A DNA stretch of 64,000 nt from Pyropia haitanensis (lineage: Eukaryota; Rhodophyta; Bangiophyceae; Bangiales; Bangiaceae). Under the pieces are notes generated by a model that searched no databases, had not been told where the DNA came from, and saw only the letters and a list, made by a program, of their open reading frames with translations. Every line of letters begins with the position of its first letter. Within the stretch, counting starts at the first letter, position 1. Shown here piece after piece: positions 1 through 38,779 of the stretch. The position numbers and the translations under genes are program-made. The stretch covers positions 996,496-1,060,495 of the forward strand of contig SDUX01000002.1 of NCBI GenBank assembly GCA_008729055.1, written 5' to 3'.

Positions 1-3000
1 CCCTGCCGTCGTTGGCGCCGCCCCCCCCGTTTGCAGATTCCCCTGTCGCGACCGGGCGGACCGGTCTCGTGGCGTTGTCGCCGCGTGCTGGTCGTCCCGG
101 CGTTCCGCCCATCGCTGTGGCGGCGCCTTTATCTATGTCAACCTTTGCTGCACTTCTCCCCCGTCGTTGGCACCGCACCCTTATCGTGGCGCGGCTGTCA
201 TCCGTCGTTGACCGCCCCTCGTCGTTACCAGCGCCCATGCCGTCGCTGCAGCGCCTCCCTCACCGTTGTGGTGCCTTCCCCCTCCTCACCATTACCGGCC
301 CGTGTTCAAGTGGCCGCTCCTCTCGGTGAGCCGCTTCGCCACCCCCCCACGTAAGTGCTGCTGGCCGTCAGCCGCGGCTGAGGTGCCCGCTTTGCTGCTG
401 TATCCCGCCATATCGTCAAGCCCCACCACCCGCCGTGGCCGCCCTCTGGCCGTTGGGGTCTCGCCTCCTCACCGCTGCTGCTCCCCACTCCCTCGACAAG
501 CTTCCCCCCCCGGCCGAGACGCTACCTCTCCGCAGTCAAGCTACTCCCGTCATCATGCCATCTCCGCCGTCGGTACCCTTTTCTCCATGTGCGGTCGCCG
601 CCCCCCCGCTGTTGCTGCCACCGCCGCCTGGCTGACCGTCAAGCCCCCTTCCTCCGCCTCCACCGCCGGCTCCTCCCTCCCAAGGCTGCTCCCCGCGTCG
701 CTGCCACCCTATCGTCGTCGATGCGGCGGGCTTGTCTTGATGTTGTAGCCCCCCCATCTCGGACGGCGCGCACGCGTGGCGGCGTTCACTCGGCCGCCGC
801 GCACGCGCGGCAGCGCCTCAGTGCCGCCGTACCCGCATCGACGCGGCGGCCGCCCCCGCCTCGGCGCGTCGCCGCCCCCCATTGTGGCGGTCATCCGCCC
901 CTCGTTGCCGTCACCAAGCCGGTGTTGCGTCGTCGTCGCCGTGCGCCGCCGCTTCTTTGTCGTTGCCGCGCTGTCGCCGCTGCCGCCCCGCGCCTGCGGC
1001 GTGCCGCCGTCCCCCTCTGGCGACGCGGCGGCCGCCCGACGCCTGGCATCTGCGATGCCCTCCCGTCGTGGCCGTGTGCGCTCTCTGTCGCCGCCGCCAT
1101 CTCGTTGAGGCGATCCGCCGCCGCCGCCGCCGCTGGCGCTGCTGACATTGCCGCCCCCCCCTCTCCCTTCATCTGTTCGCTCCACGTGGCCCCCCTCTTC
1201 GGTGCTGTCGCCGTCCCGTCGAGGCGACCCTCCCCGGTCGTTGATGCTACCACCCCCGTCGTTTTTGCTGCTCCCACCGTCGTTCCTGCGGCCCCCCGCG
1301 GCGTTGCCGGTGCCGCCGCTGTCGTTGGAGCTGACGATGTCGTAATGCCGTCGCTCCTGTCGTTGCCACCTCCCCCCGGTCCTTGGGTGTCGCCCCTGCC
1401 TCGCCCGTGTTGTAGCGTGGCCATCTTTGCCTTTGTCACCTCCTGACCCGTCACCCAGCCGCCGTTGCTACCTTTGCCGGCGCCCGCCTGGACGTTTGGC
1501 TGCGCCTCGGCCGTTCCGACGGCCGCTCCCATCTTTGCCGCCTCTTTCTCTTGTGGTGCTGGAGGTGGGCTCTGCCTGATTGATGGGGTGACGGCGCCTG
1601 CCGCTTGTGGCGGCGGAGTGGGCTGCCGCGCCAAGATGAGCGCGTGGCGCACGCTGCAGCCATTATTGTCGGTCGCCATGCGCTTCGCGCCGCGGCACTG
1701 GACGTCTGCCTTTGGCCGAGTCGGCCGCGCGTGCAGCTAGGGGCGGCGTTGGACGGCTGTAGCCCGCTTCGCGAGTCCCACTTGTTGGCAGCAGCGGCGG
1801 TACGATGGGGCGTCGTGTCCGCCGCGGCCATCGGGCGTCGCGGCCGCGGTCGCAGCGTGGCTGTCTTCGTCTCTATCCGCGCCGCTGTCGCCGCCGCGCG
1901 GCGGCGCCGCTAACATTGCCGCCGTCGCGGCCGGTAGGTCCATCGTGTTCATCGCTTCTGCGGGTAGCGCTGCCGCCGCCGCGGCCACTGCCGCTGCCGT
2001 GGTCGCCGCCGCGTCGCGTGGCAGTACTGCGGCGATTGCCGCTGCCGTGACCGCTGCCGCTGCTACTGCCGCTGCCACTGCCGCTGTCGCTGATATGCAG
2101 AACCGTGAGGGTGACTCATCGCGCCGGCCGCTGCCGACGACAGGGGTTGGTTGGGCGCTGGTTAGGGGGGCAGCGATGGCGTGAGGGCGGTTGGCCCCGC
2201 CTCCTCTCCGTTTCCGGTGCCGTCTCGCTGGTTAATCGCCGCTCCCCCACGCGTTTGGCACCGCTACTAGATGTCGGTAGAAGCATGCGGCCTTCAGAGC
2301 TGTCTTCCCGCCCGCGTCGACCCCGCCTTCCTGCCGTCGGTGCCACGCGATCTCTGCCGTGGGCGCCGCGGCTTTTCTGCTCCCGGCCTCGCCTTTGACA
2401 CCGTCACGCAGCTGTAAGCGCCGCTCCACCCTGAGATGGTCCGCCGTTTTGCGCCATCCCCTCGCTTTCGGCGCCGCTGCTCCGCTGTTGGCGGCCCCCC
2501 TTCCGCCCCCGCTGTCCCGGCGGCCCCCGCTATGGCCGTGCGCTGTCGCGGCCGTTGCGGATGCCGCTGCCTGAGCTACCGCCAACGGCTCTGTTGCTAC
2601 GACCGCCGCGGGTTTCGTCGCTGCCGCCTTCGGGATGGGCGGTCTCTGACGCGGCCACTATCGCTGCCTGTATCGCTGCCGCTGCCGCTAGTGCGACCGC
2701 CGCCGGTGCTCTGTGTTGGCCGCTACCGCGGTGTCTGACGCGGCCGCTGCCGCTGCCGCTGTCGTGGCCACCGCTGCTGCCACCGTCGCTGCCGCCGTCG
2801 CTGCCGCTCCCACGCCGGCCGCCGCTGCCGTTGTTCCTGGCCCGGCCTCTTGTGTCGGTCCTGCTGTCGCCACAGCCGACGTCGCTGCCGCCGCCGCGGC
2901 CTTCGTCGCGGCCGCCGCCGTTGTTATCGCGGCCGCCGCCGCACACTGGGCCGCTGGCACCCCTGCGGCGTCTGGCACGGCGGCTGTTGCGGTTGATTGC

Positions 3001-3850
3001 GCGTGTCACCATTGCCGCTGTGGTTTCCGTCCCTGCCACCACCGCGGCCGGTGTTGCGGCTATTGGCGTGGCCGCTGTTGCTGCCATGGTCTTTGCGTCT
3101 GTGACGGCGGCCGCCGCCGCGTTTGTGGCTGCCACGGCCGCGGCGTCTGTCACTGCCGCCGACGTGGTGGGCCTCGTCTGGCAGCTGCTGCCGCGGCGTA
3201 CTTTATCACAGCTGCTGCTGCCGTTGTCGCGGGCGCTCATACTGCCACTGTAGCTGCCGTTGACCTGGCTTTTCTCCCTGCCGCCGGCGGGACGTCTGTG
3301 GCTGCTGCCGCCGCGGCGTCTTTGTCGCTGCCGCGGTGTCTCTCGCGGCCGCCGCGCGGCCGCCGATGCGGCAGCCATCGCCATGGGCGCTGTCCGTCGC
3401 TGCTGCTGGGGAAGTGTTTGTGGCTGGTGCCGCTGTGGAGCCTGTCGCTGCCGCGGCTTCTGGTACTGTCGCGGCCACCGTCGCTGCCGCCGTGGCTGCC
3501 TCCGACGCTGCCTCCGTCGCCGCAGCTACCGCCCTCACCGCGGCGTCAGTGGCTGCCGCCGCCGCGGCTTCTGTGGCTGCTGCTGCCGCCGCCGCGGCTT
3601 CTGTGGCTGCTGCTGCCGCCGCCGCGGTCTCGGCCGCTGTCCCTGCCGCTGCTGTTGTCCCTGTCGCTTCCGCTGCCGTGGCCGCTGATGCTGTCGCTGC
3701 CGCCACTTCGGTCTCTGCCGCTCCCGCCGCCGTAGATCTGCTCTCCCCGTCGTTCCTGCCTCGCTTCCTTCGGAGCTGTCATCGCCGAAGGCGGTTCGTG
3801 TATTGGCCGCGAGCGGGATGTAACGCAGCGCCTGGAGGGGGGTGCTGCTT
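1..3850. repeat. Degenerate GC-rich trinucleotide region, no identifiable gene
   Basis: This stretch is built from imperfect GCY/GYC triplets. Because stop codons are rare at this GC, several frames stay open on both strands at once, and their translations are Ala/Val-, Arg- or Ser/Gly-rich low-complexity peptides. I recognise no domain on either strand. A short local tandem at about 3540-3632 has roughly three copies of a 30-bp unit built on ctgtggctgctgctgccgcc. The region could be decayed coding sequence of an Ala-rich protein or simple non-coding sequence, and the sequence alone does not decide between them. Confidence 0.6.
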
Positions 3851-6620
3851 TTGGCGATGGCGCCACTTGGCAGCTGCGGAGCGCAGCCTGGGACGGCTGG
3901 GCCACCTTGGGGGCGTGTACGCGCTATGGCCGCTGAGGTGTGGTGCACCGCCTTCCGCACCGCAGCCGCCGAGGCCGTGGACGCGACCGCCGGCGGTGCG
4001 ACCGCCATGGAGCGGCTCTGCGGCGCAGCCGGCGAGGCGTTGTGCGCTCCCATCAGTGTGGCTGCCGCCGCGGCGCTCGGCGGCGCCCCCTGCGTGGCGC
4101 ATGTAGCTGTGAATATTACCGGTGGGGCCGTCGCGGCGGAGGACGTCGCCATGGGCGCTGCGGCCGCCGTGACGGGGATCGGCGACGCGGCCGCCTTGGG
4201 ACGGATCGGCGTCGCGGCCGCCAGGGCGGGGGCGCACAGCCGATAGCGACGCGGCCACCGAGGCACTGCCCGCCGGTTTTAACTGTGTGGCCGCCAAGGG
4301 GCGTGCTTGCATAGCGGGCGCCGAGGCCCTGGGCGCGGCCGTCGGCGTCGCCGCTGCCGTGGGGCGCATTGCTGCCTGCCCGCCGGGGACGCGCCGCGCG
4401 CCGTTATCGGCATCGCCGCCGTCCTGGGGCGGATCGCCACATGACCGCCGCCGTGGGGCACGCCGCCGGCACGTCAGCCGCAAGCCGCTGTGCGCCGCCG
4501 TCGGCGTCGCAGCCGTTGGGGAGTGGATCGCGGGTGGCCCGCTGCCGAGAGGCTTGGTGGCGCCGTTGACCTTTCCGCCGTCTGGCGTTGGCTCGCCGCC
4601 GGCTTGCCATTCTGTCTCTGAGCGCCACCGTCTGCGTCGCCGCCGTCCATGGGCGGGTCGCCGTCTGGCCGCGGCCAAGGCGCTGGACCCTGCCGTCAGC
4701 ATCGCCGCCGCCGTAGGGCGGTTCGCCGACTGCCAGTGGCCGACGTGGCGGCCGCGGCTGTCGGCGTTGCCGCCACCGTGGGGCGGATCACCGGCTGCCA
4801 GACGCCGACGCGGCGGACACTACCGTCGGCGTGGCCGCCGTCGGACTTCGGCTCGCGGTCTGCCCGCGGCCGACGCGTAGGGAGCCATTGTCGGCATCGC
4901 CGTCGGTGTGGGGCGCGCCGCCGGCGTGCCTGCCGCCAAGGCGCTGCACGCCGCCGTCGGCGTCGCCACCGTCGGGCGGACGATCGCAACCGGCTCGCTG
5001 TCTTGGCGCTGGGTGCCGTCGTCGGCAGCGTCGCTGTCGTGGGGAGTGCCGCTGGCGTGGCCGTTGTCGTGGCGCTCGTCGCCGCCGTCGTCGTCTCCAC
5101 CGTCAAGGGGGCGGATTGCTGTTCCCCTGCCGTCGTAGCGCTGGGCGCCTCCGTCGGCGTTGCCGCTGCGGGGAGGCGTGCCGCGGCCCCCCCCGTTTTC
5201 GTCGCGCTGGGTGCGCTGCCGGCGTGTCCGTTTTCGTCCCGCTTGCCGCCGCCTTTGACGCCGCTGCTGCCGCTGGGGCGAGCGCCGCCGGCGTTGCCGC
5301 CGCTGTGGCGCTTGGCGCCGCCGTGGGCGTAGTCGCCACTGGGGTGCCGGGTAGCGCCGCCCGGGGCCCCACCGTCGGCGTCGCCGCCGCCACGGAGGCG
5401 GACCGTTGCCGGCTCGCTGCAGAAGGGCTGCGTGCGACCGTCGCCGTCGCCGTCGCTCTGCGGCGGATCGACGCCCGCCGGCCGCCGAGGGGCCGGTCGT
5501 CTCTGTCAGCATCACTGCCTTTTTAGGTCGCGCCGCCGGCCATCCGCCTACCGAGGCGGTTGGCACCGCCGTCGGCGTCGCCGCCGAGGTGGGGCGTGTC
5601 GCCGGCGTTCCCGCCATCGTTGTACCCTGCGCCGCGGTCGTCGTCTCCGCGGCCAACGGCGCGGATCGGTGCCAGTCCGGCTTCGTGGCGATGGGCGCTG
5701 CCGTCGACGTCGCTGCCGTCGTGGGCCGCGCTGCCGGCGTGCGCGCCGTCGTGGCGCTTGGTGCCGCGTTCGACGTCGCCGCCGCCGTGGGGCGGACCGC
5801 CGGCGTGCCCGTAGCCGCCGCCGTGGGGCGGACCGCCGGCGTGCCCGTAGCCGCGAGGCTGCGCTTGGCGGTCGCCGTTGTCGCCGCCGTCGGGGTCACC
5901 GTCGGTTTGCCGTCCGTCGTGGGGCTGGGCGCCGACGTCGCCGTCGCCGCCGCTGGGGGGGCGGGTCGCCGCCCGCTGGCCGTCGAGAGTCCGAGCGCCG
6001 CCGTCGGCTTCGCCGCCGTCGTGGGGCTCGCCACTGGCGTGCCTGCTGTCGTGGCGCTGGACGCCGCCGTTGACGTCGTCGCCGCCGGGGTGGGGGATTG
6101 CCGCCGGTCCGCTGCGGAGATGCCGGGCACCGCCGTCGGCGTCGCCACCACCGGACTGCGGATGACTGGCCTGCCGGCCGCCGAGGGGCGGGGCGCCGCC
6201 GTCGGCGTCGCCGCCGTCGTGAGGCGCGCCGCCGGCGTGTGCGCCGTCGTGTTGCTAGGTGCAGCCGTCGTCGTCACCGTCGTCCGCGTAGCGGACGTCG
6301 TGGGTCGCGCCGCCGGCGTGCCCGCGTTCATGGCGCTGTGCCCCGCCATCGGTGCCGCGGCCGTCACGGAGCGTGCCGCTGGAGTGCCCGTCGTCCTGGC
6401 GTCGCCGCCGTGGGGGCGGATTGCTGCCGGCCGCCAAGGGGCCGGGCGCCGCCGTCATCTTCGCCACCGTCGTGGGGCGCGCCGCTGGAGTGCCCGCCGT
6501 CGTGGCGATGGGCGCCGCCGTCGGCGCGGAGGCCGACGTGGTGCGTGTCGCTGGCGCGGCGCCGAGGCTCTGGGCGCTGCCGTCGGCGCGGCGGTCGTCG
6601 GAGGGCGGGCTCGGCGCGCC
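3850..6620. repeat. Degenerate minisatellite, unit about 66 bp (22 codons)
   Basis: A unit of about 66 bp recurs with point changes and small indels. Translated on the minus strand it reads as a Thr/Ala/Pro motif (TPAARPTTAATPTAAPSATT); on the plus strand as a Val/Ala/Gly motif (VGVAAVVGRAAGVPAVV). The minus frame is open for about 515 codons (6367 down to 4820) and the plus frame for about 555 codons (5406-7073). The Thr/Pro-rich minus reading resembles mucin- or extensin-like wall glycoproteins, but no signal peptide or flanking domain confirms it. The unit being a multiple of three fits either coding origin or triplet-based expansion. Confidence 0.6.
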
Positions 6621-7459
6621 CCCACGGGCGTGACGCCTGCGGAGGCGGCGCTGTCAAAGGGCGGGTTCGATTGGGCCACCCCGCTGCCGTTTGCGGCCGC
6701 GGTTGACGACCCGACCGTCGACGGGAATGCCACAGACGCTCGGACGGCGGCGGATGACACCGCGGCAGCGCCCCCGCCATCTGCCGCCGCCCCCGGGCCG
6801 GTTGCCGGCGCCATGGCGGCCGGCTCGCCAGCGCCGACTGTGGTGGCGGTGGCGGCTCCCGGCGGAGAATCGGTTGCAGTTGTGACGGCGATGTTGCCGA
6901 CCAGAACGACGCCGTCCGCGGCGGTGGCTGCGGCGGCGGTGGCGGCGGCGGCGCCCTCCCGTGCGCCCGTTGCCGCGGGGCGTTTTACGGTGGTGACTAC
7001 CGGATTGACAGCAACCCGCCGCACGGCTACAGTAGCGCTAACTGCGGTCGTGGCTGCCACCGCCGCCTTTTAGAGGGCGGCTGATGCCAGCTGCGGCGGC
7101 GGCGGCCACAGCGACAATGGCGGCAGCGGCCGCGGCGGTGGCCGCCGAGTCGTTTGTGCTGTTGGCAGGATGGCGGCTTGGCGAAGAGTGCACCCTATCG
7201 CCCCTGCCGCCGCCATCGTCGCCTCGGCCGCCACCGCCAACCTCTGCGCGGCGGCCGCCGCTGCTGTCGCCGCTGCCGCTGCTGCCACCTCCACCGCCGC
7301 CTCCACCATCGCCGCGGCCGCCGTCGCTGTCGTTCTCTGGCGGCGCGGCAGACGCGGCGGCCGACACGGCGACCGACGCGGCCGCCGCTGCGGCGTCGCC
7401 CGTCGGCAGCCTATCTTTGCTCCTCGGCGGCGGCGGCGGCAGCGGCGCACGCCGCCGTG
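6621..7459. other. Low-complexity stretch upstream of the chelatase-like gene
   Basis: This is Ala/Thr/Val-type low-complexity sequence open on both strands. The missing N-terminal part of the following chelatase H-like gene would be expected here or further upstream, but no frame shows recognisable similarity to that family. I see no promoter motif or RNA gene. Confidence 0.4.
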
Positions 7460-10400
7460 TCGCTGCCCGCTGCCGCCGTCGACGCGGTGGTGTCCACGAT
7501 TGGGTTGACGCTGGTCATCGGCCCTGCCGACTCCATGGCCGCCGGCTGCTTCATAGACGCGGCGGCGGCCATCCTCTTCCGCCTAGACGTGCCGTACGTG
7601 ATTGCCGTGACACTGCTCATCCAAGATGTGCCCGCGTGGTCGCTGTCGGGCGTTAGCGGCCTGCAGGCGGTGATGCTGTACGCGCTGCCCCAGCAGAACG
7701 GCGCGCTGGACCCAGCTGTCCTCGGCCGTTTTGCCGGCGACCGCACTCTCCTCGTGTTCGACCGCGTGACCGGCCACCTGCGCGCACGGCTGGCGGCGGC
7801 TGCCAAGCCGCCCGCCCAGCGCTTAGTTGCGGTCGTGCTGTGCGGCCGCCCGCCTGGCGCCGGCGCGGGGGGCACCGCCGCGCTGCTCTACGTGCCGCGG
7901 TAGCTCGAGACGGTGCTCGGCCGGCTCGCCGCCGACGGCTATGACGTTGGCGACGTGCTGACGCGCGGCGCCGCCGACCTGGTCGCCGCCGCCGCGGTCA
8001 CTGACACGGTTGGCACCGCCGCGGGCGGTGGCGTGTTGCGGGCGGCGGCGGCGGCGGCGGTGCCGTGCGCCCGCCGCCTCGTCACGCCCGCCACGCTCCG
8101 CCAGTGGCTCGGGCCCGCTGTCACCGCGCGCGTCGCCGCCGCGTGGGGCGTCGACCTCGCCGCGTGGACGCTGCCGCGCGCGTTGGACGGCGCGCTCCCG
8201 GTCGGCGGCGTCCGCTTTGGCAACCGACGGGTGGGTGGGCTGCCGCTGCTGGGCGTGCCGGGCGACCCGATGCGGCTGATGTTGGAGCGCGCGGCCACGC
8301 CAAACCCGCAGTCCTGTGGGTGGTACCGGTGGCTGGAGGTGGACCTCGGCGCGGACGCGATCGTCCACTTGGGGAAGGTCCGCACGCGCACACGGGGGGG
8401 GTGGGGGGGAGGACGGCGTGGGTGTTGGCAGGGCGGCCACCCCGTCCCGGCGCGGGCGGGGAAGCAGGGTTGGCACGGTGCCGGGGGGGGGGGGTCCGCC
8501 ACGGCTGGCGCTGATGGCGGCGCCAGCCGCGGCGCCCGTCGTGGCTGGCCGCGCCGCGGCCGCCACCGCCGTGACCGGCGGTGCTGCCCCGGTGGTTATG
8601 TGCTGCAGTACTGAAGGTCGTGACGCCGCTGCCGCCTCTGCTGTGCTCCCCGGCCTGCCCGACGCGTGCTTTCCCCGACCTTTCTCTCCCCCCCCCCCCG
8701 CTCCGCGCTGTGTGGTTTTTCGCCCCCGGAGCCCCACGCCCTGTCTGCAGCTTGCTGTGCCTCTCGTCGTTCTTTGTCCCCTGTCCGCCCCTCCCGCCCC
8801 GCCCTGTCGCGTCCACCCCCCCCCCGCACCGGATGCACGGCACGCACGAGTGGCTTCCGGGCGCCCCGCTCGGCGCGGGATCCTACTGACAACCAGACAA
8901 ACTGCTGGGCAACGTGCCCGACGCGTACATCTACGTGGCCGACAACCCCGTCGAGTTGGCGCTTGCCAAGCGCCGCGTGTCCGCCACCATCATCAGCCAC
9001 GGGGTGCCGCCGCTGGGGCGGGCGGGGCTGAACCGGGAGCTCGCGGCGCTCAAGCCGCAGCTCAGCGCGTTTTGTGCCGCCCTGGCCGCCGTGGAGGGGG
9101 GAGGGCGCGCCGGGGGGGGATGCGACGCCCCACCCGCCGCCACCGCCGCCGACGCGTCTGCCGCCGACGAGCCGACGGCGGCGGCGTCGCCGGCGACGGC
9201 GACGGCGGGGGCGGCATCGCCGTCCCCCCTCACCCCAGCCATGACGACCGCGCTGGCGGCGGTCGTCGCCGCCGCCACCGCCGCGGACTTGTCGTCGCAG
9301 ACACCCGCCCGGTGATTGCCCCGGACGGCTTCGCGGCGGGCGGCGCGGCCCTGCCCGCGTCAGCGCTCGCTGACGCGGCGGACGTGCGGTCGTCCCGCCT
9401 GGTGGTCGTCGCCGCGCGCCTCGACTCGGTGGAGCTGCACGTGCTTGGGCGGCCGCCTCCACCGCCGGCGCTTGCGGGCATCCTGTCGCCGCTGCTGGCG
9501 TCGCCGATCCCGCCCAACGAAACGGCCCTGGTTGCCGAGGGCGGGTGGGGGGGGGGAGCACCAGTCCCGGGAGGTGCTCGAGCGGGCTACCCTCCCGGCT
9601 CTGGCCGCGGCGGTTGCGGAGCACGTAGCGGCGGCTGCCGAGGGGGCCGCCGGCGCCGCCGATGGCGCGGCCGACGGCGAGGCCCACGGCGCGGCGGCGA
9701 CGGTGGCGCGGCCAAGGAGGCGACGGGGACGGCACGGGGTATATCGCCTGCCCCTTCCTCCTTTGGTGCGACCCCCTGGGCAGCTTCCCTCCCCGCCACA
9801 ACGCTCGCAGCCATCCCGTCGGCCGTGTTGGTCGGCCACCGGCTGCGGTGCACGGGCACGGAGCTGGGCGCCCTGTCCGCCACCCTCCGCGGCGGCAACG
9901 TGCGCGCCGCGTCCGGCGGGGGCGCCCTCCGCGACGGCCCCAGTGGTGCTGCCCGCCGGCCGCAACGCCCACAGCCCCGACCCGTTCCTGGTGCCGGCGG
10001 CGGCGACCGCCGCCGCTCCGCCGCCGCGGGCGCCGCCGCGGGCGCCGCCGCCACCGCCAACATGCTTTGCGCGCACGCGGCCGCGCACGGCGGCGCGCCG
10101 CCGCAGACTTTGTCCCCTTTGTTGCCCTGGTCGGCGCCCCTCTGCAGGGGCACGGTTGCCAACACGGTGGACCTGCTTGATGGCATGTTCCGCCGCGCCG
10201 TGGCGGACGGCGGGGTCACCCGGCGCTCCACTTTCGCCGCGCCCACGCGCTGGAGGCGGCCGCGGCCGCGGCGGCTGGCGACGGCGACGGTGCCGACGAC
10301 AGCGACGGCGGCAATGACGGTGACGGCGGCCGTGGCGGCGCCACCGCCGCCGCCACCGCCGCCGCGGCCGACGCCGCGGCGGCGTGGATCGCTGCCAAGC

Positions 10401-11200
10401 CGCCCGCGTCGTACGGCTGCCGCGTCGCGGTGCGGGGTGGCGGGCGGGAGCTGGGACGCGGGCGCGGCGCTGCGCGATGCGCGTGCCGCGCGCAGCGCGT
10501 GCGCGTGGGTGCGCCGCGTCCGCGGCGCGCCCGCGCGGCGCACCCTCGACGCGCTGCACCGCGTCACCGAGGCGGTCGTGCAGCGGGTGGACAGCGTCGA
10601 GTATGGGCTGACGGGCCCGTGCGGCGAGGCAGCGGTGGGGGCGGGGGGGACGGGGGGGGTGGTGCGGGGGGTTTCGTGCAATGGGAGAAGGGGTGGAGTG
10701 GGGGCCGTGGGTGGGAAGGGGGGGGGGGGGATCGGCGGGGAGCTGACGCTCGGGGGAGGGGGGGGGGGGTGGCCGGCGCCCTTCCCGCGTGGCCTTGCGG
10801 CGCATGTGCTGCGGGGCGACGCGTCGCGCGCTGGCGCTGACGGTCGAGCCATGTCGCTGCCGGCCCTGCGCCCCCGCCTCGTTTCTCCTGTGCTCTGGTT
10901 CCCTGCGTACTGCCCACGAGCGCGACCCCTCTCCCCCCCCCCCCTCGCCGCCACGACCAGCCACCCAAGAGTACCACGCCAACACGGGCGCGCTCGTCAA
11001 CGCGGCGCGGGCGACCGCGCGCACGCCCGCCGCGGCGGCGGTGGACGTCTCCGCGTCAATGGGCGAGGCGGTCGGCGTGCCCGTGACGGCCGCGGGCGGG
11101 CGGCTGGCGCACTGGGCGCCGACGCCGACGCGCCGAGTGCCGGGTCCAGCCGCTCAACTCGGGGTGGGCGGCGGCGACGCTCGCCGCGGGAAGGGGGGAG
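7460..11200 (+). pseudogene. Broken magnesium-chelatase H subunit (BchH/ChlH-type) gene
   Basis: BchH/ChlH is the large porphyrin-binding subunit that, with the I and D subunits, inserts Mg2+ into protoporphyrin IX for chlorophyll synthesis in the plastid. Family hallmarks appear in order: VSTIG and GPADSM at about 7484-7540, SGVSGLQAVMLYALP at about 7645, GTAALLYVPR ending at 7900, FGN and PLLGVPGDPMRL at about 8215-8280, AIVHLG then HGTHEWLPGAPLG (8832-8880), VPDAYIYVADNP and AKRR (8914-8985), then GRNAHSPDPF (about 9960), NTVDLLDGMFRRA (about 10160), QRVDSVEYGLT (about 10580-10612) and NTGALVNAAR (about 10980). The N-terminal quarter is not recognisable. In-frame stops lie at 7901-7903 (TAG) and 8887-8889 (TGA), and the frame changes repeatedly after 9290. 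Gaps at about 8375-8830 and 10615-10970 could be introns; the first starts AAG|GT but lacks a clear AG acceptor. The motifs resemble bacterial BchH or the second algal CHLH more than canonical plant ChlH. The family call is strong; inactive gene versus assembly errors is open. Confidence 0.75.
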
Positions 11201-11589
11201 GAGAGGAAGGGGGGTGGAGAGGGGAGGGCGCCACGCCGCGCCGCCGCGTGCGGCGAGCGGATGCGGTGGCGGCGGCCACGGCGGACAATGAGCTGTTGCC
11301 ACGGGCGGCAGCGGCCACGGGCGGCCCCCTGTGCGCGCGGCACGCTCACTCCCACACGCGGGTGTGCCCGCCGGCCGCGGCCGCCCGGTCCGCCGCTCGC
11401 ACCGTCGGCGGGCGGGCGGTGCGGCCCAGGCGCGGCCGCGCGCGCGGCCACCCCGCCGGCCGCCACCCGCCGCGCCTCGGCGGGGGGCACGCGGCCGGGC
11501 GACCGCAGGGCGCCGCGGCCGCCGCGGCTGCCGCCGGCGCGGCGGTCCACGCCAACCCCCGCCCGTCGATGGACACGGGGGGTGGTGAC

Positions 11590-13122
11590 GGCGGGGGGGG
11601 GGGGAGGGAAGGGGCAGGGTTGGCAGCGCCGGCAGCGGGGCGCCACAGGTCCGCGGCGGCCACATCGCAGGGGGGGGCACGTGGCCGGCCAGCACCGCGA
11701 CGCCCGGGGGAGACAGCGCCCGTGGCGATGCGGACGGCGTCAGGGACCGCCGCTGCCCAACAAAGTGCGCACTGTGCTTGGACAATGGCTGTCGCCGCGT
11801 CAGTCCGCGCCCCCCCCCCCCCCGCCGGCGGGCACACGTGCGCCCGGTGTGCACCCGCCTCCCGCGACAGCCGCCCACACGCGACGCAGCGGAAGCGCGG
11901 CGTCGCGCCGCGCGGGACCGCCACCAGCGTATCCCCGGGGTTGGCGAGCACCGCCGGGGGGGGGGGCGGGTGGACGCCGCCGCCACCGCCGCCGCCAGCC
12001 ACGCCGCCGCCGTCGACGCTGCGGCTGCGGTCGTCGTGGCGGCGGCGGCGGCGGCGCGACGCGTCCCGCCCGCCGCCGCTGCTGTCGCGGCTGCGGCTGC
12101 GGGAGGCGGCCCGCCCGCGGCGGCGGCCGTGGCGGCGGCGGCCACCGCGGCTGTCACTGCTGCTGCGGCTGCGGCTGCGGCTGCGGCTGCTGCGGCTGCG
12201 GCGGCCACGGTCGCCGTCCACCCCGCCCGCGCCTGCGCCCGCAACTCCCGCCCCCCCCCCCCCTCCGCGGCGGCCACCCCCCCCCCCCCCCCCGCCGCCG
12301 CCGCGGCGGCGGCGGTGGCCACCACCGCCACCCACTCGGCGACATCCCCCCCCCCCGCCGCGACCGCGGCGAGCGCGTCGCGCAGCGTCGGCACCGCCGC
12401 CGCCACCTCCCCGCCGCGGCCCGCCGCCACACACACCGCCGCCGCCCGCCGGTGGGCCCGCCCGGCCGTGTGCTGCAGCAGCGTCCGCGGCGCGTCCATC
12501 TGTGCGTTGCACACGCGGCAGTACCAGCGGCAGGGGGGGGGGGCACGGCGGCGGCGGAGCCACCCCCATCCCCACCGCCGCTACCACCACCACCACCACC
12601 ACCACCACCACCACCACCACCACCACCACCACCACCACCACCACCGGCGGCGGCGGCGGCGGCGGCGGTGGCATCCGCCCTCGACGGCCCCTCCGCCGCC
12701 GCGGCGCGCGCGGCGTGCGCGGCGGCGGCGGTGACCTTGCGCGCGTGCCCGCGGCCGCGGAGGTGCGCCGCCCACTGCGCCGCGCCGCTGACCGCCACGC
12801 GGCAGACGGCGCACTCGACGTAGCCGGGGAGGAGGCCCGGGGGGGGGGGTGGGGGGGCGCGGGGGGGGGGGGCGCCATGCCCGACCCGCCACGGCCGCGA
12901 GGTGTGGCAACGGGCGGAGGGGGGGAGGGGCACCCGTTTAGGGTGGGCGGGAGGGTGGGCGGCGGCAACCGGGGAGCGAGGCGGCCCACGCCGCCGCATC
13001 CGTCGAGGCGGCGCAGCGGGGGGTGCGGGCAAAGGCGACCCGCGGGGGAGAGGCCCGCGCGGGGCGCCCTTCCCCGACTCTGCCACACCGTAGGGTGCCG
13101 GGCGGATCAACAGCCGTGCCAC
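11590..13122 (-). CDS. U1-type (matrin-like) C2H2 zinc-finger protein, frame-broken
   Basis: Two fingers of the C-x2-C-x12-H-x5-H type used by U1C/matrin/JAZ-like RNA-binding proteins can be read. One at about 12835-12750 has core CAVCRVAVSG...HLRGRGH; a second at about 12522-12440 has core CRVCNAQMD...HTAGRAH. Between them lies a poly-Gly tract encoded by a 60-bp trinucleotide run (12583-12645). The fingers are in different frames, and the switch falls in an 11-base G run at 12533-12543, as if one base were missing. A Cys/His-rich stretch with CVACG follows at about 11,900 in the third frame after another G/C run. The upstream Met at 13122 gives a Pro/Arg-rich leader; an ATG at 12878, close to the first finger, is a more natural start. 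The 3' end is uncertain. An RNA-binding or splicing role is inferred from the finger type only. Confidence 0.5.
12583..12645. repeat. (CAC)n trinucleotide microsatellite
   Basis: About 21 uninterrupted CAC/ACC triplets. In the minus-strand zinc-finger frame it encodes a poly-Gly linker between two U1-type fingers, so length changes would alter linker length without shifting frame. Confidence 0.95.
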
Positions 13123-22802: not shown

Positions 22803-23872
22803 GGCCGACGACGGCCGGCCGGCCGGCCGGCGCGGGGCGGCGACCGCCGCCGACGGGCGGCCGCCGACGGGACCAGCCGGCGGACGCTTTCCCCCCCCCC
22901 GCATCGACCCCACCGCCGCGGGCGGCGGTGGCCAACAGCAGCCCCCCCCCCCGCCGCCACCGCCACCGCCGCCCGCCGCCGCCGCCACCGCCCCCGCGGC
23001 GGCCCAAAAAAAAAAAAACCAAGTGGGGCTCGACGAGCCAACACCCCCCTTTCCCCCCCCCCCCCCCCCCCGAGCGGTATACGCCCTCCTCTACTGACGC
23101 CGCGGCCGGCGCGCGTCGCCGCGCCGCGCCCGCCGCCCGCCGCGGCGCGCGACCGCCGCGGCGGCACCGCGGCCGCGGCGTCACCGCCGCCGCCGCCACC
23201 GCGACCGCGGCGGGACCGCCGCCGCCCCGCGGCCGCGGAACGCCGCGAGCGCTTCAAACTCAAAACTCAAATCGTGCGCCGCGGCGCGCCCGCGGGCCGC
23301 GGCCGCCGCCGGCACGCGCGCGCGCGCGACCGCCCCGCGGTTGGAAACGCGCGCCGGTCACGGGCCGCGCGCGTCCCGCTCGCGGCGAGACGCCGCGGCG
23401 CGCGCGGCGCGCCCGCCGCCGCGGCGGGCCGCCGCGGCGGCGGGCCCCCCCTGCTCCCTCGACCGCTCCCGCGGCGCCTCGGTGGCGTCGACGCGCCTGC
23501 GGGGGGTTCCCGGTTGACCGGGGCGGGTGGCGTGCTCGTCCCCCCTCCGCCCCCCCCACCCACCCCGGCTGCGTGCGCGACAAGCGTGCGGTCTTCCCCC
23601 CCCCCCGGTCGACCCACATTCCCGCCGGCCGGGGCACGAACGGCGGGTCACCCCCCCCCCCACCCCCCTCTACGTGCCGCCCTTCTTTTGGTTGCGCTCA
23701 CCCCCGCGGCCGGTCGCCAACGACCGCCACGCCCTCCCCCTCTCCCCACCCCCCCTTCCCTCTGCCCCTGGTCAGTCGTGCGCCACGGCGGGTGCAACGC
23801 TCCTTCCGCGGGCCGCTCCCCCCCCCCCCCCTCCCCCCACTCCTCTCCTCCCACCCTTCCACCCACCGCCCC
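22803..23872. other. Low-complexity intergenic region and C/T-rich leader of the SNF2 gene
   Basis: Pro- and Arg-type triplet sequence with no recognisable domain. An A13 tract at 23,006-23,018 stands out against the GC background. From about 23,690 to the SNF2 start the plus strand is mainly C and T with many C runs, matching the leaders of other genes in the window. Confidence 0.45.
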
Positions 23873-24085
23873 ATGGCGCCTGCGCCGGCACTGGCGCCGC
23901 GGCGGCCGCTGCCGCCGCCGCAGCGGCCGCCGCCGGCCGCCGCCGCCACCCGCACCATCGTTGGGGGCGGCGGTGACCAAGACGTGGACGCCCGCGGCGG
24001 CGTGTGCGCGGGCCCCTTTTGTCCCGACGTTGGGGACCCCGCTCCGCTCAGCGGCGGTACCGACGCCACCGCCGTCGCCGTCGCT

Positions 24086-24130
<45 letters not shown>

Positions 24131-26173
24131 GCCACCACCGCCGCCGCCGCGGCGGGCCGCCCGACGGGCCGGGCACGGGCGCCCCCCCCCCCGCCACCAC
24201 CCCCACCCCAACCGCCGACGCGGTGGGCACGACCGCGGCGGCGGGCGTGGCGGCGGCGGCAGACGGGGAGCTCGCCGCGGCGGCGGCGCGCCTGGCCGTC
24301 CCGCCCGCCGCGTGGGCGCGCCTCTACCCCTTCCAGCGGGCGGGCGTGGCGTGGCTGTGGTCCCTCCACCCCACCGCTGCCGGCGTCGATGGTGGTGGCG
24401 ATGGCGGCGGCGGTGGCGGTGGTCGCGGCGGTCGTGGCCGCGCCACCCCCGCTGGGGGCATCCTCGCCGACGACATGGGCACGGGCAAGACCGTCCAGCT
24501 GGCCGCCTACATGGCCGGCCTGTTTGGCACCCCCGCCACGCGCACGGCGGCGGTCGTTGTTGTTGCGCCGCTCAGCCTCCTCCGCCACTGGGCGGCAACG
24601 CTGGGCGACTGGCTCGCCGCCGCCGCCACGGTGGTGACCTACCACGGCGGCGAGGCGGCCAAGCGGGACGCGCTCGCCGCGGCGGCCGCCGCGTCGCCCG
24701 CCGCCCCCGCCGTGGTGCTCACCACGTACGGCACCCTCCGGGTGGCGGGCGGCGCGGCGGTGGCGGCCGCCCGTCCGGCCGGCTGGGACCTCCTGATCGC
24801 GGACGAGGGGCACCTGCTGGCCAACCCGCGGACCGCCACCGCCGCGGCGGTGCGGGCTGTCCCCGCGCGGCAGCGGGTGGTCGTGACGGGCACGCCGCTG
24901 GCCAACCGGCTGGCCGAGGTGTGGGCGCTGTACGACGTGGCCTGCCCGGGGCTCCTCGGCAGCGCCCGCTACTTTGCCGACACGTACGAGGTGCCGATCG
25001 TCGCGGCCCGCGAGCGGCACGCGTCGGCGTACACGCGGCGGGTGGGGGCGGCGGCGCACGCGGCGCTCGGCCGCGCGATTGGCGGCCGCTTCCTCCGCCG
25101 CACCAAGGCGGACGCGTTTGGGGCGGCGGAGGGGGGGCCCCTCGCCGCCCTCCCCGCCGCCACCGCCGACGCCGCCACCGTTGCGACCGCCGGCGCCGCC
25201 GCCGAGGTGGTGGCGGCGGCGGCGGCGAGCCCCGCGGCCGGCGTCGTCGCGGCGGGGGGTGGTGTCCCCCCCCCCCCTCGCGGCGCGTACAAGAACGAGC
25301 TCGTCGTGTGGGTGCAGCTGTCGCCCGCACAGGAGGCGCTCTACCGCGCCTTCCTCACCTCCCCCACCGTGCGGGCGGTGCTGGCCAAGACCGTCTCGCC
25401 GCTCGCGGCGCTGCACGTGCTCCTCGGCGTGTGCAGTGACCCGGCGCGGGTGGCGGCGTCGCTCGAGGCGGGGGGGGGGGGAAGGGCGCCGGGCCCGCCG
25501 CGGCCGACGACCTCGCCGCGTCCATGGCGCAGCTGGCGCTGGGCGCCCCCCGGGCTGCCGGCGTCCACAGCAGCGGCGGCGGCGGCGGTGGTGGCAAGGC
25601 CGGTCCCGCCGCGCCGGCGGCGGCGGCGCCAAATGCCAAGCTCGCGGTGCTGCTGGCGCTGCTCGCCCGCTTCCGCGCGGGCGGCCACCGGGCGCTCGTC
25701 TTTTCCTCCTCCCGCACCCTCCTCGACCTTGTCGCCGCCGCCCTGGACGCGACCGGCGTGGGCGGCGTCGTCCGGCTGGACGGCCGCATGCAGGGGGCCG
25801 CCCGGGCGGCGGTGGTCGCCGCCTTTAACGCCCCCCCCGGCGGCGGCGGCGGCGCGCCGCCCCCCTCGGTGATGCTGCTGACCAAGCAGGTGGGCGCGCT
25901 GGGCCTCACCCTCACCGCCGCCACCCGCGTCGTCCTCTTTGAGCCCCACTGGTCGCCCGCGGCCGACGCGCAGGCGGTGGACCGGGCGTACCGCATTGGC
26001 CAGGGCCGCGACGTGCTCGTCTACCGCCTCGTCACCGCGGGGGGGGTGGAGGAGCGCATCGTGCGGCGGCAGGTGGCCAAGCAGGGGCTCGCGCGGCTGC
26101 TCGGCGCGTCGGCCGGGGTGGGCGTCGGCGCGGGGGGGGCGCGTGCGGCTGCCGCCGCCGACGGTGGCGGCAT

Positions 26174-26215
<42 letters not shown>

Positions 26216-27365
26216 CGACCGCGGCGGCGGCAGCGACGGGGGCGCGACGGCCGCCATGGACGGCGGCCGCTTCTTCTCCGCCGCCGAGCTGCACGACGTC
26301 TTCTCGCTGGGCAACGTCGCCGACGCGCCGACGGCGCGGCTGCTCGCCGACGCGCTCGCCGCGCGCACCGACACGGCGGCGGTGCGGGCGCACGTGGGGC
26401 GCGTCGCCGCCGAGGTGGCGTGGCTCGCCCGGCAGCCCGCGGCGGGCAGCCGCGTGCTCGGCGTGTCCCACTGGGACCTGGTGTTTGGGGGCGCGGCGGC
26501 GGCGGCGGCGGCCGCCGTGGGGGGCGACGCGGCCGCCGTGCCGCCGCCCGCGCCGCGGCCGCCCGCGCCGCCGCCACCGGCCGAGCCGCCCGTGCCCGAC
26601 CGGCGGCCGCGGGGCGCGCCGCCGCCGCCGCCGCGGGTGCCGCCCGCCGCGACGGGCGGCGTCGCGTGGCGGCCGACCGCCGCGCCCCGCCGGCGGGTGC
26701 TCATTGAGGACGATGAACCCGCTGTTGACGGCGCGGCGGTCGCGGCCGTGCCGTGGACGGCGGCGGCGGCGTCCACGGCGGCGGCGGCGGCGGCGGCGGT
26801 GGGGGTGGGCGTCGGGGGGGGGGTGGGCGCGGCGACGACCGTGGCGGCCGCGGCGGCCGCGCCGTCGGCCGCGCGCGAGGCACACCGGGAGGGGGCGCCC
26901 GCCGGCCGGGCGCCACGGCTGATGCCGCCGCCGCCGCCGCGGGCGCCACGGCTGGTGCCGCCGCCGCCACCCCGGGCGCCGCGGCTGGTGCCGCCGCCGC
27001 CACCCCGGGCGCCGCGGCTGGTGCCGCCGCCGCCGCCGCGGCTGGCGCCGTCGCCGCCAGCCACCGTCGACGCGCCGGCAGCGGTGGGGGCACCCGCGGC
27101 GACGGCGGCGGCGGCGCCGTTGGCGCCGCCGCTGCCGCCAGCCGCGGCCACGGCCGGCCGCGGCGGCGGCGATGGCGGCGGCGACGACCGTGGCGGTGGT
27201 GGCCGGCCAGCACGGGGGGCGACCGCCGGGCGGTCGCCGCCCGTGGAGCGGCCGCCGGCCGCGGCGCCGCCCCGTGCGCGGCGGGGGTCTGGCGGCGGTG
27301 GCCCGGCGGCGGCGGCGGCGCCGCGGCGGGCGCGGGTGGTCGTCATCTCGGACGATGACACGTAG
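23873..27365 (+). CDS. SNF2-family ATPase of the ERCC6/ERCC6L (Rad26/PICH-like) type, two homopolymer frame breaks
   Basis: SNF2 ATPases translocate on double-stranded DNA in repair and chromatin remodelling. Visible motifs are YPFQRAGVAWLW (about 24,328), Walker A DDMGTGKT (about 24,470), the DEAH-type box IADEGH (about 24,798), VVVTGTPLANRLAEVWALYD (about 24,878), and the helicase-C motifs VRLDGRMQG (about 25,770), LLTKQVGALGLTLTAA (about 25,875), EPHWSPAADAQAVDRAYRIGQ (shown to 20 residues: EPHWSPAADAQAVDRAYRIG) and VYRLVT. A following FFSAAELHDVFSL resembles the ERCC6/ERCC6L post-helicase segment. The frame changes at a C11 run (24,182-24,192) and a G12 run (25,470-25,481); each is explained by one missing base, giving about 1,164 residues. 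The C-terminus is low-complexity, with 33-bp repeats and an acidic end (ISDDDT). The start at 23873 has a good context (ccATGg) after a C/T-rich leader. Confidence 0.85.
26907..27050 (+). repeat. 33-bp in-frame tandem repeat in the SNF2 C-terminus
   Basis: About four copies of an 11-codon unit encode R-A-P-R-L-(V/M)-P-P-P-P-P. The period is a multiple of three, so the SNF2 frame is kept. It is a Pro-rich tail expansion with no known domain. Confidence 0.85.
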
Positions 27366-36933: not shown

Positions 36934-38134
36934 TCAGCGGCGCACCTTGGCAGCCGCCGCCGCCACCAGCGGCGGCAGCGACTCTGTAAACGGCGGCCGC
37001 GCCACCCCCTCCTCCGTCACAATGGCGGTGATGAGGTCCGCGGCGGTAACGTCAAAGGCCGGGTTGAACACGCGCGTGCCGGGCGGCGCGACGCCGTCGG
37101 CGTCCCCCCCCCCCCGCACGGGTGGGTCACCTCCTCCGCCGCCCGCTCCTCCACCGGGATCCCCGCGCCCGTCGCGCACGCCAGGTCCACCGTCGACGCC
37201 GGGGCGACAACGTAAAAGGGCACCTTGTAGTGCGCCGCGGCGATCGCCACCGCCAGCGTGCCAATCTTGTTGGCCGTATCCCCATTCGCCGCCACCCGGT
37301 CCGCGCCGACGGTCACCGCGTCGACGCGGCCGTCGCGCAGCAGCACCGCCGCCGCCGAGTCCACCGTCAGCGTGTGGGGGATGCCCGCCGCGGCCAGCTC
37401 CCACGCCGTCAGCCGCGCGCCCTGCAGCCGCGGGCGGGTCTCGTTGACCCACACGCTCACCCCAGCGTCCGCCGCGGCCGCCGAGCGGATGACGCCCAGC
37501 GCGGTGCCGTGGCCGACCGTCGCGAGCGCGCCCGTGTTGCAGTGGTGCAGGACGCGCGCGGCGGGGGGGAGGAGCGCCGCGCCGAGCGCGCCCATCCGCC
37601 GGTTAATCGCCACGTCCTCCCGCGCAATCGCCCGCGCGTCGGCGGTGAGGGCGGCCGCCACCGCGGCGGGCGTGTGCGGCGTGGTGTCGCCACCGCCCCC
37701 GTCGCCGCCGTCGCCGCCGTCGCCGCCGTCGCCGCCGCCGTCTGCGGGTGGCACCAGCCGCAGCAGCCGGTCGAGCGCCCAGCCGAGGTTCACCGCCGTC
37801 GGCCGGGCGGCGCGGAGCACCGCCGCGGCGGCGTCAACATCCGCCCGGAAGGCGCGCCCATCGGCCGGGTGCGCGGCCGCGGCGGCGGCGGCGCCCACCG
37901 CCAGGCCGTACGCGGCGGTGGCGCCAATCGCGGGCGCGCCGCGGACGACCATAGCGCGGATGGCGTCCGCGACGGCGGCTGCCGACGACAGGTGCACGTA
38001 GGTGAGGGTGTGGGGGAGGCACCGCTGGTCCAGCAGCGTCACCGTCGTGCCGTCGACGGAGAGCGCGACGGTCTCGTAGGCCAGGGGGGGGGGCGGCCGC
38101 CGCCGGCCGCCGCCGCCGCCGCTGGGTCCCCCAT
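36934..38134 (-). CDS. mtnA: S-methyl-5-thioribose-1-phosphate isomerase (MtnA), two homopolymer frame breaks
   Basis: MtnA converts methylthioribose-1-phosphate to methylthioribulose-1-phosphate in methionine salvage; it shares its fold with eIF2B subunits. Signatures in order: [12 protein letters not shown] near the N-terminus, [61 protein letters not shown] with the catalytic Cys, [38 protein letters not shown] with the catalytic Asp, and [12 protein letters not shown]. The C-terminus ([20 protein letters not shown]) is in another frame after a C12 run (37,104-37,115), and the start region ([17 protein letters not shown]) is in another frame before a G10 run (38,084-38,093). Each is repaired in principle by one missing base, giving about 400 residues, near the family's usual 350-380. 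A Gly/Asp insert sits mid-protein. Cytosolic. Confidence 0.88.
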
Positions 38135-38779
38135 CCGCGCGTCCCCGGCGTGGCGCCACGCCCGCGTGGAGGGGGGAAGACGAGGCAATGACCAGACGAG
38201 GCGCAGCACCGGCCAAAAACAAAACACACTGCGCTGGCGTTGCGCCGCGTGGAGCAAACCGCAGACCAGACGCCCCTCGCCGGGCCGTACGGTGCCTCTG
38301 CAGCTGCGCGGCCGCGGTGGGCACTCTGCCGTCGCAGTGACGTGGCCAGATCCCGTCGGCGACGCGGCGGCCGCGTCGCACGGCCGGCCGCGGTCGATAG
38401 CGGACACTACACGTGTCGAATCTGAAACGTGGCGATGCTCTTGGCGTGCCCCGCACGGCAACCCGCCGTTTGAGCGTCCTCCGCCCTCGGCCGGCTCCCA
38501 GCGCACGACCAACCTCCCGACGAGATACCTCCCCGCCATGCACACCTACCCTCTGTACCCACTTGCCCGGCGCAGACCATCTCTGGGATGGAAAGAGAGT
38601 CACCGCCTACAAGAGGAGACACACCGCTACAACCAAACCACATCCACGCATTGGTGACGCCGCCTCTGCGGGCGTCCCTCCTCCCTTTGGGGGCGCCCCC
38701 CGCAGCCCGGCTGCGCCCACCCCCGCCGCCCCCCACCCGCGCTCCCCACCCGCTCTCCTATCCTTCGCGGCACTCTGGC
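38135..38779. other. Intergenic region between tyrosinase and MtnA genes
   Basis: This is upstream of MtnA and downstream of the tyrosinase (both on the minus strand). 38,390-38,650 is less GC-rich. No TATA-like motif at a convincing distance from the MtnA start, and no RNA gene or terminator is seen. Confidence 0.4.

What the first reader, a model, noticed from the sequence alone, without database searches (positions are those of the whole stretch)
7460..11200. Damaged BchH/CHLH2-type magnesium chelatase gene
Motifs spanning about three quarters of the H subunit are present in order, yet there is an in-frame TAG (7901) at a site where the family has Ser, a TGA (8887) inside a conserved segment, and several frame changes away from homopolymers. 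The motif variants (HGTHEWLPGAPLG, VPDAYIYVADNP) look more like bacterial BchH or a second algal CHLH than the canonical plastid subunit. It may be a relic second CHLH or an unannotated active gene with introns.
Basis: partly seen in the sequence, partly recalled or inferred. Interest (0 to 1): 0.75.

Follow-up and report, generated by a model that had tools for sequence, protein, structure and literature searches.

The report
Dead chlorophyll-enzyme gene copy in repeat
This stretch of a red seaweed's nuclear DNA holds a decayed partial copy of a second-type magnesium chelatase H gene, carried inside a dispersed repeat, while an apparently intact version of the same gene sits elsewhere in the genome.

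Summary
Window 7341-11201 (+) carries, in order, about two thirds of a CHLH2-type magnesium chelatase H subunit, with TAG at 7901 (Ser in a lesion-free paralogue), TGA at 8887 (Cys there) and many frame breaks. An intact neighbour gene is 89% identical in protein to Pyropia vietnamensis, so the host is a bangialean red alga. The same genome holds a CHLH2 gene without lesions (contig C3), an intact CHLH1, and at least four more partial CHLH2 copies (C6 twice, C93, C1). The 'gap' at 8375-8830 is an ancestral intron whose two splice dinucleotides are both lost here. Against the C3 gene, substitutions are nearly even over codon positions (dN/dS 0.85, bootstrap 0.70-1.01). Of 240 residues invariant in 23 ChlH2 proteins, 60 are lost only in the window copy and 1 only in the C3 gene. 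The copy lacks both termini and lies inside a dispersed repeat found at seven other loci without it. Best reading: one CHLH2 segment captured into a repeat, multiplied with it and decaying neutrally. The active-gene alternative does not fit the sequence; no RNA data were available. An ordinary kind of thing, mildly interesting as gene capture in a red alga.

The parts
1..7340 (+). Upstream part of a dispersed repeat unit that carries the CHLH2 piece; it continues left beyond the window
   Evidence: Colinear in pieces with C6m from window about -5292 and with C6p from about -2433, up to 9733, at 67-85% identity; parts recur at seven loci without CHLH2 and at an eighth that ends with its contig; no mobile-element protein found
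7341..8373 (+). Relic of CHLH2 exon 2 (3' part); homologous frame 7454-7900 and 7904-8373; TAG at 7901
   Evidence: blastn to C3b; 82% identity for the exon 2 tail; Pfam/NCBIfam hits; stop in register at C3b codon 509, TCG->TAG
8374..8831 (+). Relic of intron A; donor GT now GA, acceptor AG now CG
   Evidence: Alignment to the C3b intron (497 nt) and to copies C6m, C6p and C93, which also lack GT at that site but keep the AG
8832..9484 (+). Relic of CHLH2 exon 3, with the HGT.E and NP.E motifs; TGA at 8887
   Evidence: 78% identity to C3b exon 3; C3b codon 684 TGC->TGA
9485..9653 (+). Relic of intron B; donor GT kept, acceptor AG now GG (gapped alignment here)
9654..10108 (+). Relic of CHLH2 exon 4, cut by a deletion of about 596 nt that removes the exon end and most of the next intron
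10109..10147 (+). Remnant of intron C; donor deleted, acceptor AG kept
10148..10614 (+). Relic of CHLH2 exon 5 with frameshifts at about 10215 and 10433
   Evidence: 77% identity to C3b exon 5; indels; TIGR02025 1051-1109
10615..10960 (+). Relic of intron D; donor GT now GC, acceptor AG kept
10961..11201 (+). Relic of CHLH2 exon 6 (5' part); the rest of exon 6 and exon 7 not found
   Evidence: 80% identity to C3b exon 6; homology ends at 11201; exon 6 tail and exon 7 give only short low-scoring matches
11247..11757 (+). Downstream part of the same repeat, found at three CHLH2-free loci that also hold the upstream part
   Evidence: 76% C10a, 75% C10b, 73% C7

Best explanation
An unprocessed pseudogene carried by a repeat. 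A genomic segment of the CHLH2 gene, introns included, from mid exon 2 to mid exon 6, was copied into a dispersed repeat of a bangialean red alga, where a CHLH2-free copy has about 1.1 kb of repeat instead. The chimeric unit was then copied to several loci: the window copy is the longest, and four others (C6 twice, C93, C1) end at the place matching window about 9726-9733. Freed from selection, the copies gather stops, frameshifts and splice-site losses. The second H subunit is presumably made from the lesion-free gene on contig C3 and the canonical one from CHLH1. Shown: homology, lesions, near-neutral pattern, shared repeat flanks, paralogues without lesions. Inferred: that the copy makes no working protein, that the segment entered the repeat (and not the reverse order of events), and that recombination or transposition carried it; the agent of movement is not identified.
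For: Whole-genome search finds an intact CHLH1, a stop-free multi-exon CHLH2 and broken copies. C3b can be read as 7 exons over 1463 codons without stop or frameshift, at a score of 2610 against 2638 with lesions allowed; the window copy scores 709 against 867. Window copy against C3b: mismatches of 16.2, 16.9 and 18.3% at codon positions 1, 2, 3; dN/dS 0.85 (bootstrap 0.70-1.01); 663 of 955 codons keep the residue against 613-666 in a neutral simulation, and 2 stops against 1-10. Window copy against C6p shows no third-position excess (0.193, 0.172, 0.150). Of 240 invariant columns C3b keeps 219 and the window copy 160; 60 are lost only in the window copy, 1 only in C3b. Tree: end branch 0.012 for C3b, 0.59 for the window copy. 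Repeat. Some neighbours are open over nearly whole domains: ALDH 9-461 of 461, IF-2B 2-242 of 280, TLC 7-194 of 198.
Against: dN/dS is 0.54 over codons 1-560 of the gene (236 aligned codons), 0.84 over 561-800 and 1.06 beyond; 663 kept codons lie at the upper edge of the neutral range. Indels shared by the copies are in frame or compensating: -2/-1, -9, -18, -24 in all five, +3 in four. C3b against the copies has a small third-position excess in the shared part. So a first copy may have been under some constraint for a time, or the signal comes from the constrained C3b branch. C3b's own model is inferred: the program admits only GT-AG introns, its lesion-tolerant run used 2 frameshifts in C3b, and no start codon was found in the upstream frame. 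Two neighbours are not in one clean frame: SNF2 lies in two frames and tyrosinase matches profile 148-213 of 214 only. No RNA data. No transposase or terminal repeat was found.
Confidence: 0.93

Rival explanations
1. An unannotated active CHLH2 gene whose breaks are introns or recoded stops.
For: The breaks at 8374-8831 and 10615-10960 fall at ancestral intron positions. A stop-free spliced path can be forced, but with 8 introns and a lower score (709 against 867).
Against: Intron A has lost both splice dinucleotides, B its acceptor, C its donor. Stops and frameshifts lie inside exons. N-terminal third and C-terminus not found. Near-neutral substitution pattern and loss of 60 invariant residues.
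Confidence: 0.02
2. An intact gene damaged only by sequencing or assembly error in very GC-rich DNA.
For: The region is 76-81% GC with many G/C homopolymers.
Against: Lesions are not only homopolymer slips but substitutions and deletions of up to about 596 nt. Several indels are shared with four other loci. About 17% substitutions against C3b at all codon positions. The ALDH neighbour is identical over residues 190-687 to a protein from a 4.4-kb contig of another source.
Confidence: 0.02
3. A repeat-borne gene fragment now used as a regulatory RNA or antisense source against the C3 CHLH2 gene.
For: Five partial copies share parts of exons 2-3 with that gene; exon pieces of over 120 nt are 72-82% identical to it in the colinear matches.
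Against: No evidence of transcription or conservation; divergence among copies looks neutral.
Confidence: 0.03

Closest known systems
CHLH2/ChlH2 (BchH2-type) magnesium chelatase H subunit of cyanobacteria, green algae and red algae
   Same: Sequence, order of blocks, place in the tree, lesion-free paralogue on contig C3
   Different: The window copy lacks both ends and carries stops, frameshifts and lost splice sites
Gene fragments captured and multiplied by repeats (transduplication, as by Helitrons or Pack-type elements; recalled)
   Same: Partial gene with introns, same repeat flanks at several loci, CHLH2-free copies of the repeat exist
   Different: No transposase, helicase or terminal signature was found, so the carrier is not assigned to any transposon class
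Duplicated (unprocessed) pseudogene
   Same: Introns retained, lesion-free parent elsewhere, near-neutral divergence
   Different: Carried inside a dispersed repeat rather than a simple tandem or segmental copy of the parent locus

Membership tests
ChlH2/CHLH2 magnesium chelatase H subunit | Homology to PF02514 and TIGR02025 in order | tested here: met
ChlH2/CHLH2 magnesium chelatase H subunit | Falls in the ChlH2 clade, not ChlH1 | tested here: met
   with C3b and red-algal CHLH2; ChlH1 and ChlH2 divided by 100/100 branches (midpoint root)
ChlH2/CHLH2 magnesium chelatase H subunit | Complete open reading frame including the N-terminal part | tested here: not met
   N-terminal third not found, 2 stops, 4 frameshifts in the best lesion-tolerant alignment
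ChlH2/CHLH2 magnesium chelatase H subunit | Binds porphyrin and works with subunits I and D | not testable with these tools
   no experiment
Duplicated pseudogene | Disabling lesions in exons and splice sites | tested here: met
Duplicated pseudogene | Lesion-free parent in the same genome | tested here: met
   (C3b; its start codon was not located)
Duplicated pseudogene | Neutral substitution pattern | tested here: met
   overall dN/dS 0.85 (0.70-1.01), but the 5' part has 0.54
Duplicated pseudogene | No functional transcript or protein | not testable with these tools
   no RNA data
Gene fragment captured by a transposon | Fragment lies inside a repeat that also exists without it | tested here: met
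   C10a, C10b, C7 hold both repeat sides without CHLH2
Gene fragment captured by a transposon | Carrier has a known transposition protein or terminal signature | tested here: inconclusive
   no mobile-element family in 28 frames scanned; listed Helitron_like_N and RVT_1 matches lie elsewhere; the ends of the repeat were not mapped

The most novel reading that the evidence does not exclude
The repeat-borne CHLH2 pieces are not mere debris. A first chimeric copy was expressed and constrained for a time, and the surviving family of copies now feeds antisense or small RNA that tunes the C3 CHLH2 gene.
Probability: 0.03. Interest if true: 0.55.

Novelty: new member of a known kind. Interest (0 to 1): 0.25.

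Why it matters
It settles that the odd H-subunit motifs are the wreck of a second-type chelatase gene and points to the lesion-free CHLH2 of a bangialean red alga, whose role beside CHLH1 is open. It also gives a worked case of a photosynthesis gene segment carried and multiplied by a dispersed repeat in a compact, GC-rich red algal genome, which gene finders may misread as genes.

Tried and rejected
Recoding (TGA as selenocysteine or tryptophan): rejected because the copy also has TAG, frameshifts and lost splice sites, although the TGA sits at a Cys codon of C3b. Canonical plastid CHLH: rejected by the tree. CobN: NCBIfam CobN models score below BchH on the same pieces; one plasmid cobN matched window 8820-9080 at 69% over half of it. 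Search for a mobile-element protein in or beside the repeat: 28 open frames scanned in Pfam (9, 10, 9), no mobile-element family. The weak matches were Thioredoxin_3 (E 0.044) at window 2533-3384 and zf-met (E 0.0003, score 21.3 against cut-off 21.2) at 12157-13122, which lies downstream of the repeat. The ends of the repeat were not mapped. No RNA family reached its gathering score in the window.

Frameshift counts differ by method: 4 by profile, 11 by pairwise alignment; in the multiple alignment some indels fall differently. The profile alignment of the window copy also ran on past 11201 to about 12585 with long introns; I take that tail as chance. The 1003-codon open frame 8280-11288 lies above the 95% point (674) but below the maximum (1133) of 300 resampled sequences. 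The tblastn part printed no rows and was replaced by the profile alignment.

Full report
What is there. The window is nuclear DNA of a bangialean red alga. A gene in it (methylmalonate-semialdehyde dehydrogenase type, 59449-61509; residues 190-687 searched) is 100% identical to P0235, an unnamed protein of another source, 89% to Pyropia vietnamensis and 81% to Porphyra umbilicalis. The assembly holds 52.9 Mb in 136 contigs, with the window at C11:996496-1060495. Passages of the Neoporphyra haitanensis genome paper (PMC8752119, passages seen) give 49.67 Mb and 70.06% GC. The species may be N. haitanensis or a near relative; this is inference.

The damaged gene. Open pieces between 7175 and 10838 hit BchH (TIGR02025) in order. 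A 797-aa protein joined from the pieces finds cyanobacterial second-type ChlH (40% identity, E 3e-119) and the red alga Agarophyton chilense (37%) among 279 proteins, of which the best 120 were listed. Among solved structures it matches ChlH better than CobN.

The rest of the genome. A search of the whole assembly with PF02514 gave 18 matches. They are one intact single-frame gene (C3a, C3:6691650-6695021), one stop-free multi-exon gene (C3b, C3:2459492-2465336), the window copy, and pieces on C6 (two places) and C93. A DNA search with window 7460-8374 (40 of 51 candidates scored) added a partial copy on C1, so five partial copies is a lower bound. The 80 listed relatives of C3a in prokaryote genomes are 70-73% identical to it, and its motifs read like those of the solved ChlH printed, so I take it as the canonical CHLH1. 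C3b can be read as seven exons over 1463 codons without stop or frameshift, and a stop codon follows. Three cautions: the program admits only GT-AG introns, so that feature is by construction; its lesion-tolerant run preferred two frameshifts (near an optional 125-nt intron and in a linker) at 2638 against 2610; and no ATG stands in the open frame upstream, so the start was not located.

Tree. I gave 34 rows: 10 of the 80 loci, 18 of the ChlH2 proteins, C3a, C3b and four copies (not C1). The copies and C3b form one clade (100/100), sister (99/95) to a clade of Agarophyton, Gracilariopsis and three unnamed proteins. ChlH1 and ChlH2 are separated by 100/100 branches. C3a falls with the ChlH1 rows, which were found as its relatives, so that part is by choice of rows. 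Some rows are long or of odd composition, and three copies fill under half of the columns. [quoted passage not shown] Searches listed no paper that, by title and abstract start, describes such a copy in a red alga (one search showed 8 of 12); apart from those passages I did not open these papers.

The lesions. Aligned to C3b, 955 codons stand in register and 663 keep the residue. Two are stops: 7901 (Ser codon) and 8887 (Cys codon). There are 19 coding indels, 11 not divisible by three. A deletion of about 596 nt takes the end of exon 4 and most of intron C. Of four introns in the stretch, A has lost both splice dinucleotides, B the acceptor and C the donor, and D has GC instead of GT.

Selection. 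Mismatches against C3b are nearly even over codon positions in the whole stretch (16.2, 16.9, 18.3%; introns 25%) and show a small third-position excess in the part shared by all copies (0.169, 0.142, 0.204). dN/dS is 0.85 (0.70-1.01); by part it is 0.54, 0.84 and 1.06. Between the window copy and C6p the third position is not faster. Of 240 columns invariant in 23 ChlH2 proteins, C3b keeps 219 and the window copy 160; 60 are lost only in the window copy and 1 only in C3b. In the 144 such columns aligned in five rows, C3b keeps 130, the window copy 102, C6m 100, C6p 99 and C93 98; 12 are lost in all four copies, 12 only in the window copy, and 25 are kept in C3b and the window copy but lost in one or more of the others. 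So decay began before the copies parted and went on in each line. Against this, the indels common to the copies are in frame or compensating: -2/-1, -9, -18 and -24 in all five, +3 in four. This leaves room for an early phase under some constraint, or for insertions in the C3b line.

The carrier. Sequence left of the gene piece recurs widely. The window and C6m are colinear in pieces from window about -5292 to 9726. Long matches to window 5003-7400 stand at C6 (two places), C93 and C1, all with CHLH2 pieces, and at eight further loci: C6:3487229, C11:4180766, C10 (three), C4:1543469, C7:595379 and C55:163183 (40 of 869 candidates scored, so a lower bound). Seven of these show no CHLH2 piece; C55 cannot be judged, because its contig ends there. 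Three (C10a, C10b, C7) also carry the sequence that follows the gene piece in the window, 11247-11757. In C10a about 1.1 kb lies between the places matching window 7183 and 11247. The gene piece is therefore best seen as an insert in the repeat. None of the 28 open frames scanned there or beside it matches a mobile-element family in Pfam, and the listed reverse transcriptase and Helitron matches lie outside the fetched repeat loci (150 of 271 RVT_1 candidates scored). How the repeat moves is unknown.

Verdict. A captured, multiplied and decayed CHLH2 fragment: an unprocessed pseudogene inside a repeat. The absence of transcripts is not shown.

Noticed in passing
L009 (C3:2458500-2467500, minus strand): A CHLH2 gene readable as seven exons, at least 1463 aa, with alanine-rich linkers, in a bangialean red alga; its start codon was not located.
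   Followed up: yes
L012 and L013 with flanks (C6): Two C6 copies of the repeat plus CHLH2 unit are 91% identical over 4.1 kb and 87% over 8.1 kb, in opposite orientation and about 1.6 Mb apart, so a recent duplication.
   Followed up: partly
L022 and L023 (C10:1274840 and 1307508): Two CHLH2-free copies of the repeat lie about 30 kb apart in inverted orientation, 86% identical over 5.3 kb.
   Followed up: no
window 38783-40030 (-) and 37020-38603 (-): A reading frame with the end of a tyrosinase domain (profile 148-213 of 214) next to an eIF2B-like (IF-2B) gene.
   Followed up: no
window 24004-27362 (+): SNF2 helicase in two frames (SNF2-rel_dom, then Helicase_C), probably with an intron near 25.1-25.6 kb.
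   Followed up: no
G000 (150 scored RVT_1 matches): Many near-identical reverse-transcriptase frames of 1180, 1664 and 1330 aa, suggesting recently active retroelement families.
   Followed up: no
window 23147-23236 (-): ARAGORN reports one tRNA-like fold with no clear anticodon in very GC-rich DNA, probably chance.
   Followed up: no
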